Below, one piece after another: positions 1,045-42,365 of a stretch of DNA of 43,504 nt; within the stretch, counting starts at the first letter, position 1; each line of letters opens with the position of its first letter. The notes under the pieces were generated by a model that saw only the letters and a list, made by a program, of their open reading frames with translations, was not told the DNA's origin and did no database searches. Source of the DNA: a virus. The stretch spans positions 1 to 43,504 of the IMG/VR virus record IMGVR_UViG_3300027861_000056, one strand, 5' to 3'. The translations under genes and the position numbers were made by a program.

Positions 1045-2535
1045 ATGGCAACAATTGTAAACCAAAAAAATGAGGTATTTTCTAATATTACAGCACTAAA
1101 CGTAGTTAATGATGATGTACCTAAATTGCCAGAATTTAATTCAGAAGATACTATTAATAATGAAACAAACTCATCCGATTTTTTAGTAGGTTTAATTAAA
1201 GCTTTAGAAGGTGCTGAAAAATTAAAAGATATTGTAGTTGATACCATAGTTTATAAATTACCAGAAATTGAAAGTTTAATTAAGGAAGGACTTAAACAAG
1301 AACTAAAGGAATGTGTAGCTTGTAGTATTAACCCAGCAATACCAGACTGGTTTCAAAATGGGGGTTCTGGTGTTGTCATGAAAGTTACTGATATAGATTT
1401 CTTTGGTATGATGAAAACTAATCCAGATAGCGTAACGGGTGGACTTATTTATACCGATATAACTTCCGAGGTATATAGTAAAGATTTTAACACCTACCTC
1501 TATTACTCTATCCAAGCCCCAACAACACAAAACCCATGGGGTAACTCAATGATTGGTACGGACGTACTAGAAACAGAGTTTCAAGAAGTTGGGGTCAACA
1601 ACAATAACGTACTTAAGTTTACCACTAGTGCTGCTTACAGTAATAAAAAATTAACAGAATTCAATAATGATTTTATTGATACACTAACACTTTTCGGTGA
1701 ACCAAATAGTGTTGACTCCGCAACCTTCATAAGTTTAATACTTGAACAGCTATTCGGCTCTATTGGTTCAACATCAAGTTCATCATCAAGTTCATCATCA
1801 AGTTCATCATTGAGTAGTAGTACAACTAAATCCACTAAAGAAGTGAAGGATAAAGTGGAGATTGAAGAAATACTTGATTGTATTATTAATTCTGAAGATG
1901 ATAACATAACTGATAATTTCTTTGAGTTCGATAACCCAACATTAGGTAGACTAAGCCAAATAAGTAATGATAGAGCAAAGGGGATTAGAAGAATAGAATG
2001 TTGCGAGGATGTAGAAAATGGGATAAGTGAAAGATTAGCAATTGATGTTTACAACACAATTAAATCCGCAACAACTAAACAAGCAGAACTTGAAGCCGTA
2101 AGTAATGGTCTTAGTGATATTGCAGATAGCCAAGCAGACGGAACTATGAACCCAGAAGACAAAACAACGATTAAAAGTAATTTCTTCAAGGACATTATAA
2201 ATTCACTTGTTAGAATTGTTATGACTGTTATAATTTCACCAAAATTCATTACACTATTTGCGATAAACCACCAGATAATCTATGGTCAAGGTAGTAGTTA
2301 CTCTAACGCTAAAGATTTTATTTCTAAAAACAGAAAGTTAATGAAAGATATTTCTAAAGTTATTCTAAAAATAATATTAGAAATATTACTAAAAATAGCT
2401 TTATATCAACTTAGTTTAAAACTTGCACAAAAATTTGCCGCTGATGAAATAGAAAAAGGTAAACTTTATTTAAGTAGAATAACAAACGCTATTGGTGTTG
2501 ACCCAGAAATTTTGAAATTGATAGCAGAATTATAA
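1045..2535 (+). CDS. Putative virion structural protein with poly-serine linker
   Basis: This 496-residue protein has no enzyme motif. An N-terminal part of about 230 residues is separated by a nearly pure serine tract (about residues 242-257, made by a repeated 12-nt unit) from a C-terminal half. That half carries hydrophobic helical segments, about 385-410 (IVMTVIISPKFITLFAIN) and 430-460 (isoleucine/leucine-rich). The SPK-x-x-x-LFAIN region followed by repeated I/L helices resembles large baseplate or virion proteins of T4-like and jumbo phages. The start follows the upstream stop by 4 nt and the downstream gene starts after 12 nt, indicating an operon. The role (baseplate or tail component) is inferred from context. 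Confidence 0.8.
   Translation: MATIVNQKNEVFSNITALNVVNDDVPKLPEFNSEDTINNETNSSDFLVGLIKALEGAEKLKDIVVDTIVYKLPEIESLIKEGLKQELKECVACSINPAIPDWFQNGGSGVVMKVTDIDFFGMMKTNPDSVTGGLIYTDITSEVYSKDFNTYLYYSIQAPTTQNPWGNSMIGTDVLETEFQEVGVNNNNVLKFTTSAAYSNKKLTEFNNDFIDTLTLFGEPNSVDSATFISLILEQLFGSIGSTSSSSSSSSSSSSLSSSTTKSTKEVKDKVEIEEILDCIINSEDDNITDNFFEFDNPTLGRLSQISNDRAKGIRRIECCEDVENGISERLAIDVYNTIKSATTKQAELEAVSNGLSDIADSQADGTMNPEDKTTIKSNFFKDIINSLVRIVMTVIISPKFITLFAINHQIIYGQGSSYSNAKDFISKNRKLMKDISKVILKIILEILLKIALYQLSLKLAQKFAADEIEKGKLYLSRITNAIGVDPEILKLIAEL
1771..1812 (+). repeat. 12-nt tandem repeat encoding poly-serine
   Basis: The unit TCATCAAGTTCA is repeated about three times in frame, followed by further serine codons. 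It encodes a flexible serine linker inside the structural gene. Such tracts expand and contract by slippage, so length variation between relatives is expected. Confidence 0.8.
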
Positions 2536-5669: not shown

Positions 5670-6038
5670 ATGAGAAGATTTGATAAAGATAAGAATATAG
5701 AAAAAGCTAATATATTAACTGAACAAAGATATATAGAATCCAAAGGATTATTAAAAGAAAATAGTGACACATATTTCGAATCACTTGCGGAAACCTTAGA
5801 TGCGGTTAGAGATAAGGCAACTAGTATGGGTTTAGAATTAGATGAAGAAGATATATGGGCACATTTTGGTACGGGTGGAATACCCTATGGTTCAACAAAA
5901 TCAGCAACGATACCTCTATTAAAAGATAATAACCCAATTTTAAATAAAAGGGGTAAGGTAGCAAATATGGCAATTCGTGTTTCGATATACAGAATGGATT
6001 CTGGTAGATATGAATTAACACAATATAAAACTTGGTAA
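5670..6038 (+). CDS. Virion protein with shared N-terminal leader, paralogue A
   Basis: This 122-residue protein starts with a 30-residue leader (MRRFDKDKNIEKANILTEQR, then YIESKGLLKE). The next gene carries almost the same leader at both DNA and protein level, while the two bodies are unrelated. The leader ends in L-K-E, which fits the (L/I)-x-E cleavage rule of T4 gp21-type prohead proteases. By analogy with T4 internal proteins, it may be a capsid-targeting sequence removed during maturation. The body contains EEDIWAHFGTGGIPYGSTKS and a beta-rich end. There is no recognised domain. It follows the structural gene by 12 nt. Confidence 0.75.
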   Translation: MRRFDKDKNIEKANILTEQRYIESKGLLKENSDTYFESLAETLDAVRDKATSMGLELDEEDIWAHFGTGGIPYGSTKSATIPLLKDNNPILNKRGKVANMAIRVSIYRMDSGRYELTQYKTW

Positions 6039-6148
6039 TAAGGTAATATAATATTATGAGAAGATTTGATAAAGATAAGAATATAGAAAAGGTTAATATA
6101 TTAACTGAACAAAGATATATAGAATCCAAAGGATTATTAAAAGAAGAT
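5670..6148 (+). repeat. Direct repeat of about 93 bp at the 5' ends of two adjacent genes
   Basis: Positions 5670-5762 and 6056-6148 are nearly identical; only two base differences are seen in the first 90. The similarity extends a few bases upstream across the AATATTATG start context. It stops sharply at the codon after L-K-E. The near identity at synonymous positions points to recent duplication or gene conversion of only the leader. Confidence 0.85.
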
Positions 6149-6397
6149 GTCACATCAGATAAAGAAATTGATTTAGCTAACTCAAATGATACAGATTATA
6201 ATATCTGTGATGATATGAGTAGTAACACTAAGGAAGAATTAATCGATTTACTTAATAATACTAAAATCACACCAGAAGATAGAGTTAAGATACAATCTTT
6301 ATTAGATGAATTAACAAGTACTAATAAAAGATTAAGCAATGACGGTGATAACGTAAATCTAATCCAACATAAGATTGGTTCAACACTCTGTAGATAA
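6056..6397 (+). CDS. Virion protein with shared N-terminal leader, paralogue B
   Basis: This 113-residue protein repeats the leader of the preceding gene with only one amino-acid change (A to V) before diverging at the L-K-E site. The rest is acidic and helical (DLANSNDTDYNICDDMSSN, then KEELIDLLNNTKITPEDRVK), with no known domain. A rho-independent terminator follows at 6437-6463, so this ends the rightward unit. It is likely an internal or head-associated protein if the leader is a capsid-targeting signal; that function is inferred. Confidence 0.75.
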   Translation: MRRFDKDKNIEKVNILTEQRYIESKGLLKEDVTSDKEIDLANSNDTDYNICDDMSSNTKEELIDLLNNTKITPEDRVKIQSLLDELTSTNKRLSNDGDNVNLIQHKIGSTLCR

Positions 6398-13195: not shown

Positions 13196-15220
13196 TCAAT
13201 CATCAATCATTTTATCGATGTCATTAATCATATCATTAATATTTTCATTAATTTTTATGTTCTTATCCACTATCTTAACCCTTTCATTCATAATCTCCTT
13301 TTCCTTTGGTTTAATAGAAGTTATTAACTTATCGTAATAGTTTCCTTGGTACTTATTAATTTTCTTATTAATTTTATCTTTACTTTCAGTAATTAAGTTT
13401 TCAGTTCTCTTAATTGACTCTTCAGTAGCTTCTGGTTCATCACCACCGAAGCCTTCATCACCACCTTCATCATCACCGAAGCCTTCATCACCACCTTCAC
13501 CGAAGCCTTCATCACCACCTTCACCGAAGTCAAGACCACCGCCTCCACCACCGAAGCCGCCTCCACCGCCTCCACCACCGAAGCCTTCATCACCACCTTC
13601 ATCACCACCTTCATCACCACCACCAGACTCACCTTCTTGAGCAACCTTAATATCACCATATATCCTATCAACCTCATCGAATGTACCAGTATGTTTAATA
13701 ACCGATGATGTTTTTTCTAATTCAGAAGAAGCAGCTTTCTCCATTCTCTGTTCAAGTAAATCTTGTTTAATTTCATCATCAGCCCATCCAAGAATTTCTC
13801 TTTTTGCCCTAGTCATAGACATAACACCGAATCCATTACCAGAGTCACTAACAGCATCTTTAAAAAGTGTAACCTTAGCTTGTAAATGTTCAACTTTAAG
13901 CATCTCTGCTTGTGTAGATGGATTATTAAGTGCAAGTGTAAAATTATCTAATTCTTCATCAAGACCTAAAAGGAATAAGTGTAAGATAGCAATCTTATTT
14001 AATTCCATTATCATAGCTTGTTGGATTCTATTAATTGTTCTAGTGAATCTAATATCCTGTAAAGCTAAATTCTTACCCTCGCCCATAGCATCTTCATACC
14101 CTAAGAAAGACTTAGGTACCCTTAATGCTGTAAATAATTTCTTTTGTAAATATTCGATATCTGCAATTTGGTCAAGATTAGACGCTCCAGCAAGAACATC
14201 AATTGGATTAGGAGCATCTTCACTTCTAACTGGAATAAAGAAATCCTGGTCATTCGCCATTTGATTATATTGTAAATCTATTTGACCAGTTTGTGGGTCA
14301 ACAACAGGACTTCTCTTAAACCTATTTGCAATATCATCTACATAAGACGGTACATCTTCATCATCGATATTACCAACATAGATTTTATATACCTTTCTTT
14401 CTGGAGCTCTTGTAACCCTATAAATAAGCATTGCATCTTCAGAAAGTATTAATTGTTTCCATATTCTCCTAGCTTTCTCTAATACTGAAGTTCCATAAGG
14501 AAGTCTCCTATCATCACCTAGAAGTCTAAAGTGTGCAATTTGCCATGAATTAAACTCAAGGTCTCTACCTCTCCATATAAACTTAACCTTTGGGTCATCC
14601 GCTTCTTCTCCACCAATCGGAGTAGAACCACCGCCATTAACCATTCTAGAATATAAATCACCCTCTCTTCTCTCAATCTCAAAGTTAGGCATTTGTCTTC
14701 CACCAATTACTCCAGCCTTATCATCAATATTAAGAAATACGAAGTTATCACCATACTTACAGGTATTTCTAACCCACATTGGAAGTGACGTATGTATGTC
14801 AAGTCTATTAAAGAATAAATCCTCTAGAATTGTCTTAACCCTCTTAGATTCTGAATAAATATTAAGAACTCTACCCTTTTCGTTTATTGTTGAGGATTCC
14901 TCCATCATAATATCTAAAGCAGCTGAAATCTCTGGATAACCCTCCATAGCCTCAAAATCACTATATGAACCAATACGAGTTGTTTCATAATGAATTGCCT
15001 TTTGAAACATTTCATTATCAACCTTTCTCCATTGCCCACCAAGATACTTATTTTGTTGGGCCTGTAATTTAGCCTGGTTGAATTCCTCCTTATTTTGTGT
15101 TTTTAATAATGTATCATTACCAATAGAATACCTATTAGTTTTAGACTTAGGTGCGTTGACACCATCTGGTCCAAATATATTGTTTAATCTTTGAAATATT
15201 GTTAAATTTTTCTTAGCCAT
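13196..15220 (-). CDS. gp20: Portal protein (gp20-like) with Gly/acidic repeat tail
   Basis: This 674-residue protein forms the ring at the head vertex through which DNA is packaged. Conserved segments are FEAMEGYPEISAALDIMMEE, VRNTCKYGDNFVFLNI, WQIAHFRLLGDDRRLPYGTS, VLEKARRIWKQLILSEDAML, YRVTRAPERKVYKIYVGN, DQDFFIPVR and RVPKSFLGYEDAMGEGKNLA, all typical of T4-type portals. It is longer than T4 gp20 (524). The surplus is mainly a glycine/acidic low-complexity tail (about 527-600, GGDEGFGE-type units with a run of glycines) followed by a charged helical end. It is downstream of the terminase and a small zinc protein. No ATATTTAT motif is seen directly before it. Confidence 0.93.
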   Translation of the reverse strand: MAKKNLTIFQRLNNIFGPDGVNAPKSKTNRYSIGNDTLLKTQNKEEFNQAKLQAQQNKYLGGQWRKVDNEMFQKAIHYETTRIGSYSDFEAMEGYPEISAALDIMMEESSTINEKGRVLNIYSESKRVKTILEDLFFNRLDIHTSLPMWVRNTCKYGDNFVFLNIDDKAGVIGGRQMPNFEIERREGDLYSRMVNGGGSTPIGGEEADDPKVKFIWRGRDLEFNSWQIAHFRLLGDDRRLPYGTSVLEKARRIWKQLILSEDAMLIYRVTRAPERKVYKIYVGNIDDEDVPSYVDDIANRFKRSPVVDPQTGQIDLQYNQMANDQDFFIPVRSEDAPNPIDVLAGASNLDQIADIEYLQKKLFTALRVPKSFLGYEDAMGEGKNLALQDIRFTRTINRIQQAMIMELNKIAILHLFLLGLDEELDNFTLALNNPSTQAEMLKVEHLQAKVTLFKDAVSDSGNGFGVMSMTRAKREILGWADDEIKQDLLEQRMEKAASSELEKTSSVIKHTGTFDEVDRIYGDIKVAQEGESGGGDEGGDEGGDEGFGGGGGGGGFGGGGGGLDFGEGGDEGFGEGGDEGFGDDEGGDEGFGGDEPEATEESIKRTENLITESKDKINKKINKYQGNYYDKLITSIKPKEKEIMNERVKIVDKNIKINENINDMINDIDKMIDD
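13430..13640 (-). repeat. Tandem repeats encoding portal Gly/acidic tail
   Basis: Short in-frame units of 15 to 24 nt (such as TTCATCACCACC and TTCACCGAAGCC blocks on the plus strand) are repeated many times. They encode GGDEGFGE and a poly-glycine core. They are coding repeats, not a CRISPR array. Confidence 0.85.
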
Positions 15221-38791: not shown

Positions 38792-39306
38792 TGGCTAACT
38801 ATAACTTTAATAAAGACATTGCCGATGGTGAAAGAGGTGAGCAAGTAGTAAGAGAAGATTTAGAATTAGCTGGAGCTTCATATATTGGTGATAATAAAAA
38901 TAATCAATATGATATAATAATGACAATGCCTAATGGTAAGGATGTTAAATTTGAAATAAAAACAGATGTCTGGTGTATCCCAGGTAAAATAATAGAAATG
39001 CCATTCGGTAATATAACTATACCCAGTAGAGATAATGGAAATATGTTCATTGAGTTTGAATGTAGAGGAAAAGATTCTGGAATAAGGGTGTCAAAAGCTG
39101 AGTGGTTTGTCACTTACTTCCCTCATTATGGTGAAATGTGGTATATAATGATGGATAAACTAATCACACTATGTGAAAGTGAGAATATACCAACGTCAGA
39201 ACAAGCTGGTGATGAAGATTCAAATACCAAAGGATATTTATTACCAAGAAATGAATATAAAGAACATTTTAAAATTAGAAAAACAGAATATAAATGGGAA
39301 AGTTAA
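38791..39306 (+). CDS. PD-(D/E)XK-superfamily nuclease-like protein
   Basis: This 171-residue protein has an N-terminal helix with IADGERGEQVVREDLELAG (glutamates on the helix). YIGDNKNNQYDIIMTMPNGK follows with D41, then VKFEIKTDV with E55-x-K57, the core acidic/lysine signature of restriction-like nucleases. The remainder (MFIEFECRGKDSGIRVSKAE, YWFV-type strands) fits the same fold. It could be a resolvase-like or DNA-end-processing enzyme. It is coupled to the preceding gene by TAATG and overlaps the HNH gene by 13 nt. Confidence 0.7.
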   Translation: MANYNFNKDIADGERGEQVVREDLELAGASYIGDNKNNQYDIIMTMPNGKDVKFEIKTDVWCIPGKIIEMPFGNITIPSRDNGNMFIEFECRGKDSGIRVSKAEWFVTYFPHYGEMWYIMMDKLITLCESENIPTSEQAGDEDSNTKGYLLPRNEYKEHFKIRKTEYKWES

Positions 39307-39785
39307 CAATTGAATTAATACCTAAAACTTGTTTTGGTTCAAACGTAAGGTCACTATTCAAACCTAAGTATTGGGATATCCTTAGAAAAGCTTCTTACGA
39401 GAAAGCTGGTCACGTATGTGAGATTTGTAGTGAGAATGGTAAAGACCAAGGATATAGACACAATGTTGAATGTCATGAAATATGGACATATAATGATATA
39501 ACTAGAACTCAAAAATTAGATGGTCTTATATCTCTTTGTCCAAAATGTCACCAAGTTAAACATTTTGGGAGAACCAGTGCTATAGGTAAACAAGCGGAAG
39601 CTTTTAAACATTTAGAGAAAGTTAATAACTGGAATCATCATGATTGTGTTAATCATGCGGCAGAGTCAATGACCGAATGGTTAGAAAGGTCCAAATATAA
39701 ATGGTATATTGACCTAAGCATTCTTCATGAAGAATTTGAGCTACCCAAGAATTTAATAACAGAAGCAGAGAAGAAACGTAAATAA
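39294..39785 (+). CDS. HNH endonuclease-like protein
   Basis: This 163-residue protein has an HNH zinc-finger nuclease core: C42-E-I-C45, the H61-containing VECHEIW, an interior LDGLISLC82PKC85H86QVKH pair and H90. This C-x-x-C ... H ... C-x-x-C-H pattern is typical of phage HNH enzymes. No intron or homing context is visible and the gene sits inside an ordinary operon, so a free-standing DNA-processing nuclease is likely. It overlaps the preceding gene. Confidence 0.82.
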   Translation: MGKLTIELIPKTCFGSNVRSLFKPKYWDILRKASYEKAGHVCEICSENGKDQGYRHNVECHEIWTYNDITRTQKLDGLISLCPKCHQVKHFGRTSAIGKQAEAFKHLEKVNNWNHHDCVNHAAESMTEWLERSKYKWYIDLSILHEEFELPKNLITEAEKKRK

Positions 39786-41657: not shown

Positions 41658-41972
41658 ATGAATGAAGATTTTAATAAATTAATTAGTTATGCCATTTGTG
41701 AAAGATTATACTTCGAAATGAAAAATACAAACTATTCAACATTTGGCGCAATGTGTCAAAACTTGCATGATTCAATAATTAATGGATTAGAGCTATCAAG
41801 TGACTTGTATAAAGTATTAAGCAAAACAATAACAACTATTACAAAATTATACGGGTTTGAATATGATGAAACAAATGAACACATTACCAGGTTCCTTAGT
41901 GAAAAAGAATGGGAAATATATAAAGAATGGGTGATAATTTTAAAAAATGATACAAAGAATTCATTCCAATAA
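41658..41972 (+). CDS. Hypothetical helical early protein
   Basis: This 104-residue, mostly helical protein (MNEDFNKLISYAICERLYFE, TITKLYGFEYDETNEHITRF) is behind a near-consensus host-type promoter. It ends in front of the second promoter at 41974-42004. No motif is recognised. Like many early phage genes it is small, acidic and orphan in appearance. Confidence 0.65.
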   Translation: MNEDFNKLISYAICERLYFEMKNTNYSTFGAMCQNLHDSIINGLELSSDLYKVLSKTITTITKLYGFEYDETNEHITRFLSEKEWEIYKEWVIILKNDTKNSFQ

Positions 41973-41973
41973 C

Positions 41974-42004
41974 TTGTATATGTTAAAACTATTTCGTATA
42001 TTTG
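41974..42004 (+). promoter_or_regulatory. Host-type promoter TTG-N20-TATATTTG ahead of G-rich block
   Basis: TTG at 41974-41976, a 20-nt spacer and TATATTTG at 41997-42004. Transcription would begin near 42010 and run straight through the G-rich block. Confidence 0.75.
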
Positions 42005-42030
42005 TAATATGAATGAAGAGCACACTTTGT

Positions 42031-42110
42031 AAACCTGGGGAAACCTAGAGGGGGCTGGGGGTGTGTCGAAAGGGGTCGAAAGGGGCCGATAGGCCGCCAA
42101 AGAAATTTTT
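42031..42110 (+). other. G-rich transcribed element, possible G-quadruplex/R-loop site
   Basis: In an otherwise AT-rich genome this block has G runs at 42037-42040, 42050-42054, 42057-42061, 42072-42075 and 42082-42085, separated by 2 to 10 nt. It satisfies the usual G-quadruplex rule. T-C-G-A-A-A-G-G-G-G is directly repeated, and GGCC-GATA-GGCC can form a small hairpin at 42084-42095. A T run follows at 42106. C is scarce on this strand, so ordinary pairing is limited. No ORF with a canonical start covers it (only a 7-codon ATG frame at 42009). It lies between the 41974 promoter and the 42135 gene. Confidence 0.6.
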
Positions 42111-42134
42111 TTAATAATATAATACCTAATAACA

Positions 42135-42365
42135 ATGACTAAATACGAACATATAGAACTACTTAACCAAACAATGGCTCTAGCCATGAATATGCTTCAT
42201 AATTTACAACCTAATGGTCTCAATAGAGTAAAAATAATAGCACTACTTAATAATGCCCTAACTATTAGTAATTGCCCAAAAGATATGATAGAACATAATC
42301 AAAATATTCTAAAACTTAAATTAGAAAGAAATATTAACTACTATGATGATGAAATAAATAAATAA
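42135..42365 (+). CDS. Hypothetical small helical protein
   Basis: This 76-residue protein (MTKYEHIELLNQTMALAMNM) is helical throughout with L/N-rich stretches (IALLNNALTISN). It is the first gene behind the G-rich block and opens a run of tiny, closely packed genes that continues to the right edge. Its expression may be affected by any structure in that leader. Not recognised. Confidence 0.6.
   Translation: MTKYEHIELLNQTMALAMNMLHNLQPNGLNRVKIIALLNNALTISNCPKDMIEHNQNILKLKLERNINYYDDEINK

What the first reader, a model, noticed from the sequence alone, without database searches (positions are those of the whole stretch)
41974..42110. G-rich transcribed block directly behind a perfect host-type promoter
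Five runs of four or five G lie within 49 nt in a genome that elsewhere rarely has G runs, and they begin about 27 nt after the predicted transcription start. The G-rich strand is the non-template strand, so nascent RNA could form a G-quadruplex or a stable R-loop. T4 starts replication at R-loops made by promoters with unwinding elements, so one hypothesis is a replication origin or priming site. Other options are a regulatory RNA leader for the small-gene operon, a transcription-pausing element or an acquired fragment. No coding explanation was found.
Basis: partly seen in the sequence, partly recalled or inferred. Interest (0 to 1): 0.75.

Follow-up and report, generated by a model that had tools for sequence, protein, structure and literature searches.

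The report
Oriented G-rich intergenic phage cassette
The G-rich block is real and is a copy of a short, strand-oriented intergenic cassette (core AGGGGGCTGGGGG plus a small hairpin) that recurs at one part of the genome in several related T4-like phages of Bacteroidota; its function is not proven, and the promoter in front of it is a feature of this phage alone.

Summary
In detail: five runs of 4-5 G lie in 42037-42085 behind TTG-N20-TATATTTG (41974-42004); none of 2500 shuffles gives such a cluster. The window is a fragment of a T4-like Bacteroidota phage. Relatives show what is conserved: only the core AGGGGGCTGGGGG (42049-42061), and in the closest ones a small hairpin and T tract after it. 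Ten copies of the core (one with a variant core) occur in eight phage genomes. In about 7.6 Mb of 96 phage records, all seven exact cores lie within 8 kb downstream of one conserved HNH gene and on its strand; none lies elsewhere. Copies are sharp-edged cassettes of about 60-125 bp between unrelated genes; one genome carries three. The strand is fixed relative to the genome, not to transcription, and the upstream promoter exists only in this window. A conserved transcript leader or R-loop origin is therefore unlikely. I favour a DNA-level modular cassette: a G-quadruplex-capable signal at transcription-unit borders of the plastic region, in the manner of T4 PeSL shuffling cassettes. A second and far more conserved G-rich element (repeats plus poly-G) lies 1-6 kb further downstream in relatives, beyond the window's end; it is the better replication-origin candidate.

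The parts
41974..42004 (+). Bacteroidota-type promoter TTG-N20-TATATTTG; predicted start near 42010
   Evidence: sequence; pattern count against shuffles; absent from the G strand upstream of the core in all other copies
42009..42032 (+). seven-codon open frame ATGAATGAAGAGCACACTTTGTAA directly before the block; probably not a gene
   Evidence: sequence; its start overlaps the predicted transcription start
42037..42040 (+). G run 1, specific to this phage
   Evidence: absent in G002 and G006 cassettes
42041..42112 (+). intergenic cassette: AAACCTAGAGGGGGCTGGGGGTGT, tandem G runs, hairpin, T tract
   Evidence: profile match 42039-42120, E 2.4e-15, with the window copy itself in the profile; local identity with G002 and G006 copies
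42049..42061 (+). conserved core AGGGGGCTGGGGG (G runs 2 and 3); alone able to form a two-tetrad G-quadruplex
   Evidence: exact core in G002 (3 copies), G019, G042, G043, G044, and in L245/L249; GGGG version in G006; Vienna G-quadruplex fold
42066..42085 (+). tandem duplication TCGAAAGGGG x2, giving G runs 4 and 5
   Evidence: sequence; absent in relatives
42084..42095 (+). hairpin GGCC-GATA-GGCC
   Evidence: paired in 5 of 5 window-type cassettes, with GACC-GAA-GGTC (compensatory G-C to A-T) in G006
42106..42112 (+). T7 tract, 10 nt after the hairpin
   Evidence: sequence; not a canonical intrinsic terminator
41658..41972 (+). upstream gene (104 aa, no family); homologue ends 24 nt before the core in G006
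42135..42365 (+). downstream small gene (76 aa, no homologue found), first of a small-gene run
39294..39785 (+). anchor gene, HNH endonuclease (phrog_5200)
   Evidence: relatives

Best explanation
The block is one copy of a short, sharp-edged intergenic DNA cassette (AGGGGGCTGGGGG core; in the window's nearest relatives a small GGCC hairpin and a T tract follow). It belongs to the plastic region downstream of the HNH gene in a clade of T4-like phages of Bacteroidota. Shown: recurrence, fixed region, fixed strand relative to the genome, unrelated flanking genes, three copies in one genome. Inferred: it works at DNA level as a module-border signal. The G strand can fold into a quadruplex when the duplex opens (replication fork, recombination, or passing transcription), and shared cassettes give homology and stalled or single-stranded DNA at which neighbouring small-gene modules are exchanged, much as PeSL cassettes are proposed to do in T4-type phages. 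In this one phage a promoter lies just upstream and would also transcribe through the block, which could help the G strand open.
For: All 7 exact cores in 96 phage records (7.57 Mb) lie within 8 kb downstream of the HNH gene on its strand, none elsewhere even with one mismatch; under uniform placement, five genomes p about 5e-8. Sharp edges: G002 copies share -13..+48 at 90%; L257 and L258 share -15..+110 at 89% with unrelated flanks. Three copies in G002 between different genes. G strand agrees with the upstream gene in window, G002 and G006 but opposes both flanking genes in L257, L258, L259 and L274, and the upstream gene in L260. Copies sit between transcription units: after gene ends, after a terminator (G002b, L245), or before a promoter (G006, L245). 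Core rare in Flavobacteriaceae: 12 hits in 299 genomes of about 1 Gb. Quadruplex potential: G4Hunter 1.5-2.3 in all ten copies; two-tetrad fold of the core.
Against: No experiment shows quadruplex formation or recombination. The four G3+ tracts needed for a strong quadruplex are missing in G002 and G006, where only the core pair is long; the Vienna fold with quadruplexes allowed does not choose one in 4 of 10 copies. Many relatives lack the cassette, including close relative G011, whose contig covers the 2.7 kb after the same gene. The family link between the window type and the L257 type rests on 13-14 shared bases plus place and strand.
Confidence: 0.42

Rival explanations
1. RNA-level element: in the window type the cassette is a 3'-end or leader element. 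The G pair, hairpin and T tract act in the transcript as a pause, decay barrier or weak terminator, or as a translational operator.
For: In G002a, G002c and G006 the core begins 15-25 nt after the stop codon of a + strand gene. The hairpin is kept with a compensatory change, followed by a T tract. RNA folding with quadruplexes gives -34.1 against -30.4 kcal/mol for the window.
Against: In L257-L259 and L274 the RNA of the flanking genes would be C-rich, and in L245 the core lies after a terminator and before a promoter, so outside transcripts. Canonical terminator spacing is not met. Fold z-score without quadruplex is only -0.99. No Rfam family.
Confidence: 0.25
2. Relic or relative of a bacterial interspersed G-rich repeat picked up by phages, without a function for the phage.
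For: Spirosoma oryzae carries 81 copies of AGGGGGCTGGGGG, many in inverted pairs. Flavobacteriaceae carry CTCCCCCTCCTTCGGAGGGGGCTGGGGGGAGG-type repeats. Some phage copies keep a short CC(C)T..AGG palindrome before the core.
Against: Host copies usually have a C5 arm forming a hairpin with the first G5, which phage copies lack. Phage copies are few, of one orientation and confined to one region. The core is about 80 times rarer in Flavobacteriaceae than in these phage records.
Confidence: 0.17
3. R-loop replication origin: the promoter makes an RNA that stays paired to the C strand and primes replication, as at T4 origins.
For: Promoter and G-rich non-template strand are present in the window.
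Against: Promoter upstream of the core in only 1 of 10 copies. No GC-skew switch in G002, G025 or G032 beyond gene direction. G002 has three copies. A repeat plus poly-G element elsewhere is far more conserved.
Confidence: 0.06
4. Strand-oriented protein-binding signal, for example a Chi-like recombination-control or packaging-control site read by a phage enzyme as sequence and not as a quadruplex.
For: Near-invariant core sequence, fixed strand relative to the genome and to the terminase in the genomes where both were located, fixed region.
Against: Many phages with the same HNH gene lack it. No binding protein identified. Not near the terminase genes.
Confidence: 0.1

Closest known systems
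PeSL cassettes (promoter early stem-loops) of T4-type phages (Arbiol 2010 and Comeau 2014, cited in PMC4503421; the originals were not available here)
   Same: Short intergenic cassettes with a stem-loop, several copies in plastic regions of T4-like genomes, unrelated genes on either side, a promoter next to some copies
   Different: G-tract core and fixed genome strand; a promoter directly after the stem-loop is seen only in G006 and L245; the hairpin is not a canonical terminator
pilE G-quadruplex with its sRNA promoter, Neisseria gonorrhoeae (PMC3547852)
   Same: G-rich non-template strand next to a dedicated promoter; recombination-linked region; strand matters
   Different: Promoter not conserved with the phage element; four-tract motif not conserved in the nearest relatives; no recombination data
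Bacterial REP/BIME-type G-rich interspersed repeats (Spirosoma, Flavobacteriaceae)
   Same: Same AGGGGGCTGGGGG string
   Different: Host repeats usually have a C-rich hairpin arm, both strands, many copies; phage cassettes have none of these
T4 R-loop replication origins
   Same: Promoter feeding a region that could hold RNA-DNA hybrid
   Different: Promoter not conserved; no sign of an origin

Membership tests
PeSL cassettes of T4-type phages | early promoter directly after the stem-loop | tested here: not met
   In the window the promoter precedes the block; a promoter follows the block only in G006 and L245
PeSL cassettes of T4-type phages | recurrent cassette in several intergenic places of the plastic region | tested here: met
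   three copies in G002, sharp edges, unrelated flanking genes
PeSL cassettes of T4-type phages | mediates recombination between phages | not testable with these tools
   needs crosses, or many closely related genomes
pilE-type recombinogenic G-quadruplex | four or more G3+ tracts with short loops, conserved | tested here: inconclusive
   met in window, L257-L260 and L274; not met in G002 and G006
pilE-type recombinogenic G-quadruplex | dedicated promoter transcribing with the G strand as non-template, conserved | tested here: not met
   1 of 10 copies
R-loop replication origin | conserved promoter plus replication start at the site | tested here: not met
   promoter not conserved; no skew switch; replication starts themselves not testable here
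REP/BIME repeats | palindromic, dispersed, both orientations, high copy | tested here: not met
   1-3 copies per genome, one strand, one region
Intrinsic transcription terminator | G+C-rich stem directly followed by a T run | tested here: not met
   4-bp hairpin, T7 begins 10 nt later; scan finds none at the block
Known RNA families (Rfam 15) | score above gathering cut-off | tested here: not met
   none in the window; only sub-threshold chance-level matches

The most novel reading that the evidence does not exclude
T4-like phages of Bacteroidota carry a dedicated system of strand-oriented G-rich DNA signals: the cassette described here and, 1-6 kb downstream, a more conserved element of AT-rich repeats plus poly-G. 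Together they would direct replication initiation or recombination in the region of fastest gene turnover, which would be a phage counterpart of the pilE G-quadruplex.
Probability: 0.2. Interest if true: 0.8.

Novelty: new variant of a known kind. Interest (0 to 1): 0.52.

Why it matters
G-rich elements are scarce in viruses of Bacteroidetes (lowest but one of the bacterial host groups, mean 0.41 predicted sites per kb, PMC8036883). An oriented, region-specific G-rich cassette there suggests a selected DNA signal in large, little-studied phages. If it marks module borders, it makes gene shuffling in T4-like phages outside E. coli testable. The second element found on the way gives a concrete candidate replication origin for a clade with genome records up to about 370 kb.

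Tried and rejected
Coding explanation: only antisense ORFs cross the block, rejected. Direct DNA search of annotated phages: no true match. L002, brought in by the downstream protein, was a chance match in a G+C-rich contig. The relatives' poly-G element first looked like the same feature, but five genomes carry both elements, in the order HNH gene, cassette, poly-G. Chi-like reading (GCTGGGGG resembles E. coli Chi GCTGGTGG) noted but untested. GC skew as an origin test was uninformative because it follows gene direction. Genome-wide motif scan mostly returned G+C-rich bacterial repeats. The nhmmer profile of the window-type cassette found no copies beyond those known. The match of the poly-G region to Cronobacter/Enterobacter phages covers only its downstream part, apparently a terminator hairpin, not the G block.

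Full report
What the window is. The 43.5-kb window is an IMG/VR virus record, apparently a fragment. Its terminase hits T4-like phages and 271 environmental stretches, and it carries thymidylate synthase and portal-like and ClpA/B-like genes (my reading of the translations). Promoters of the form TTG-N~20-TATATTTG point to a Bacteroidota host (established knowledge).

The observation. Five runs of four or five G lie at 42037-42085, behind TTG (41974) N20 TATATTTG (41997). This is the only G3+ quadruplex motif in the window and the highest G4Hunter score. None of 2500 dinucleotide shuffles gave five such runs in 50 nt. No plausible gene crosses the block.

A first false trail. Terminase relatives showed a striking cluster of G runs, one per genome, always downstream of the same HNH gene (39294-39785 in the window) and on its strand. 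Reading these clusters showed a different element: AT-rich repeats of the type AAAAATTTCCCAGAAAAATTTT, then GAACATCATCAT, then GGGGGGTATATAAGGGGGGTAACGGGGGGAGGGGTAC. I call it element B. In the window it would lie beyond the end.

The window's own element. Directly after the homologue of the upstream gene 41658-41972, phage G006 has GAACCCTTGAAGGGGCTGGGGATTTGAGGAGAG...GACCGAAGGTC...TTTTTTT, and G002 has three copies of AACCTNAGAGGGGGCTGGGGGTGTTAGGAAAAGGCCGAAGGCC or a close variant nearby. The window reads AAACCTAGAGGGGGCTGGGGGTGTGTCGAAAGGGGTCGAAAGGGGCCGATAGGCC. So runs 2 and 3, the hairpin and the T tract are shared; run 1 and the tandem TCGAAAGGGG are this phage's own. The hairpin pairs in all five copies, with a compensatory G-C to A-T change in G006.

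Region and strand. An alignment of the HNH protein fetched 80 loci. The core occurs in L257, L258, L259 and L274 and, as GGGGGTCGGGGG, in L260. Scanning 96 phage records (7.57 Mb) with up to one mismatch gave seven exact cores; all lie within 8 kb downstream of the HNH gene and on its strand. For five genomes, uniform placement gives about 5e-8; the records are related, so this is a guide only. Five genomes carry both elements, always in the order HNH gene, cassette, element B.

Sharp edges. The G002 copies share 62 bp at 90% identity and then diverge; L257 and L258 share 126 bp at 89% between unrelated genes. This is the behaviour of a modular cassette.

Transcription. On the G strand, a promoter upstream of the core exists only in the window. 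G006 has one downstream, and L245, a related T4-like phage, has a terminator before the core and a promoter after it. In L257-L259 and L274 the flanking genes run against the G strand, and in L260 the upstream gene does. What is constant is the strand relative to the genome: in the genomes where terminase and HNH gene were both located they lie on opposite strands, with the G elements on the HNH strand. A transcript leader or promoter-fed R-loop is therefore not the conserved function.

Hosts. In 299 Flavobacteriaceae genomes (about 1 Gb) AGGGGGCTGGGGG occurs 12 times (reversed control 4), often inside a C5-G5 hairpin repeat. Spirosoma oryzae has 81 copies, many in inverted pairs. The phage cassette is unlike these in lacking the C arm and in its single orientation, but shared origin cannot be excluded.

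Mechanism. I favour a DNA-level signal at borders of transcription units in the plastic region, which can open into a quadruplex and offers shared homology for module exchange. Shown: recurrence, place, strand, edges, quadruplex potential by sequence score. Inferred: the quadruplex itself, recombination, and any help from the window's promoter. PMC3547852 shows that a promoter beside a G-rich strand can drive quadruplex-dependent recombination in another organism; PMC4503421 summarises the PeSL shuffling cassettes. Both are analogies, not membership: the tested defining feature failed in each case (promoter conservation; promoter directly after the stem-loop).

Limits. Most records are fragments; absence of the cassette in one is weak evidence. 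Window-type and L257-type copies share only 13-14 bases plus place and strand. No experiment was possible.

Noticed in passing
L270:16200-16520; L254:19507; L268:18278; L274:17875; L276:15233; L286:17863; L298:19422 and about 15 more: Element B: AT-rich repeats, then GAACATCATCAT, then poly-G (GGGGGGTATATAAGGGGGGTAACGGGGGGAGGGGTAC), one per genome, same strand as the HNH gene, conserved in over 20 loci of T4-like phages; where a downstream gene is held it always runs towards it (20 of 20). Replication-origin candidate.
   Followed up: partly
L290:16412 and L302:11059: Two contigs end inside or just after element B, perhaps because poly-G breaks assembly, perhaps because of real ends.
   Followed up: no
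L281:15626-16510, L286, L270 (gene beside element B): A DUF932 protein family is the neighbour of element B in three phages; other phages have different, mutually related families there.
   Followed up: partly
G098 (Spirosoma oryzae; L341-L344): 81 copies of AGGGGGCTGGGGG, many as inverted pairs about 51 nt apart: a large interspersed repeat family.
   Followed up: no
window 13481-13640 (- strand, portal-like ORF 13196-15220): Glycine- and glutamate-rich low-complexity stretch, the most G+C-rich part of the window.
   Followed up: no
window 5670-6038 and 6056-6397: Two neighbouring ORFs begin with nearly the same 30 residues (MRRFDKDKNIEKANILTEQRYIESKGLLKE), a recent partial duplication.
   Followed up: no
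window 1045-2535: ORF with a poly-serine run (13 S in a row).
   Followed up: no
L003: A second IMG/VR contig (29 kb) has a terminase identical to the window's, apparently the same phage population; it does not cover the G block.
   Followed up: partly
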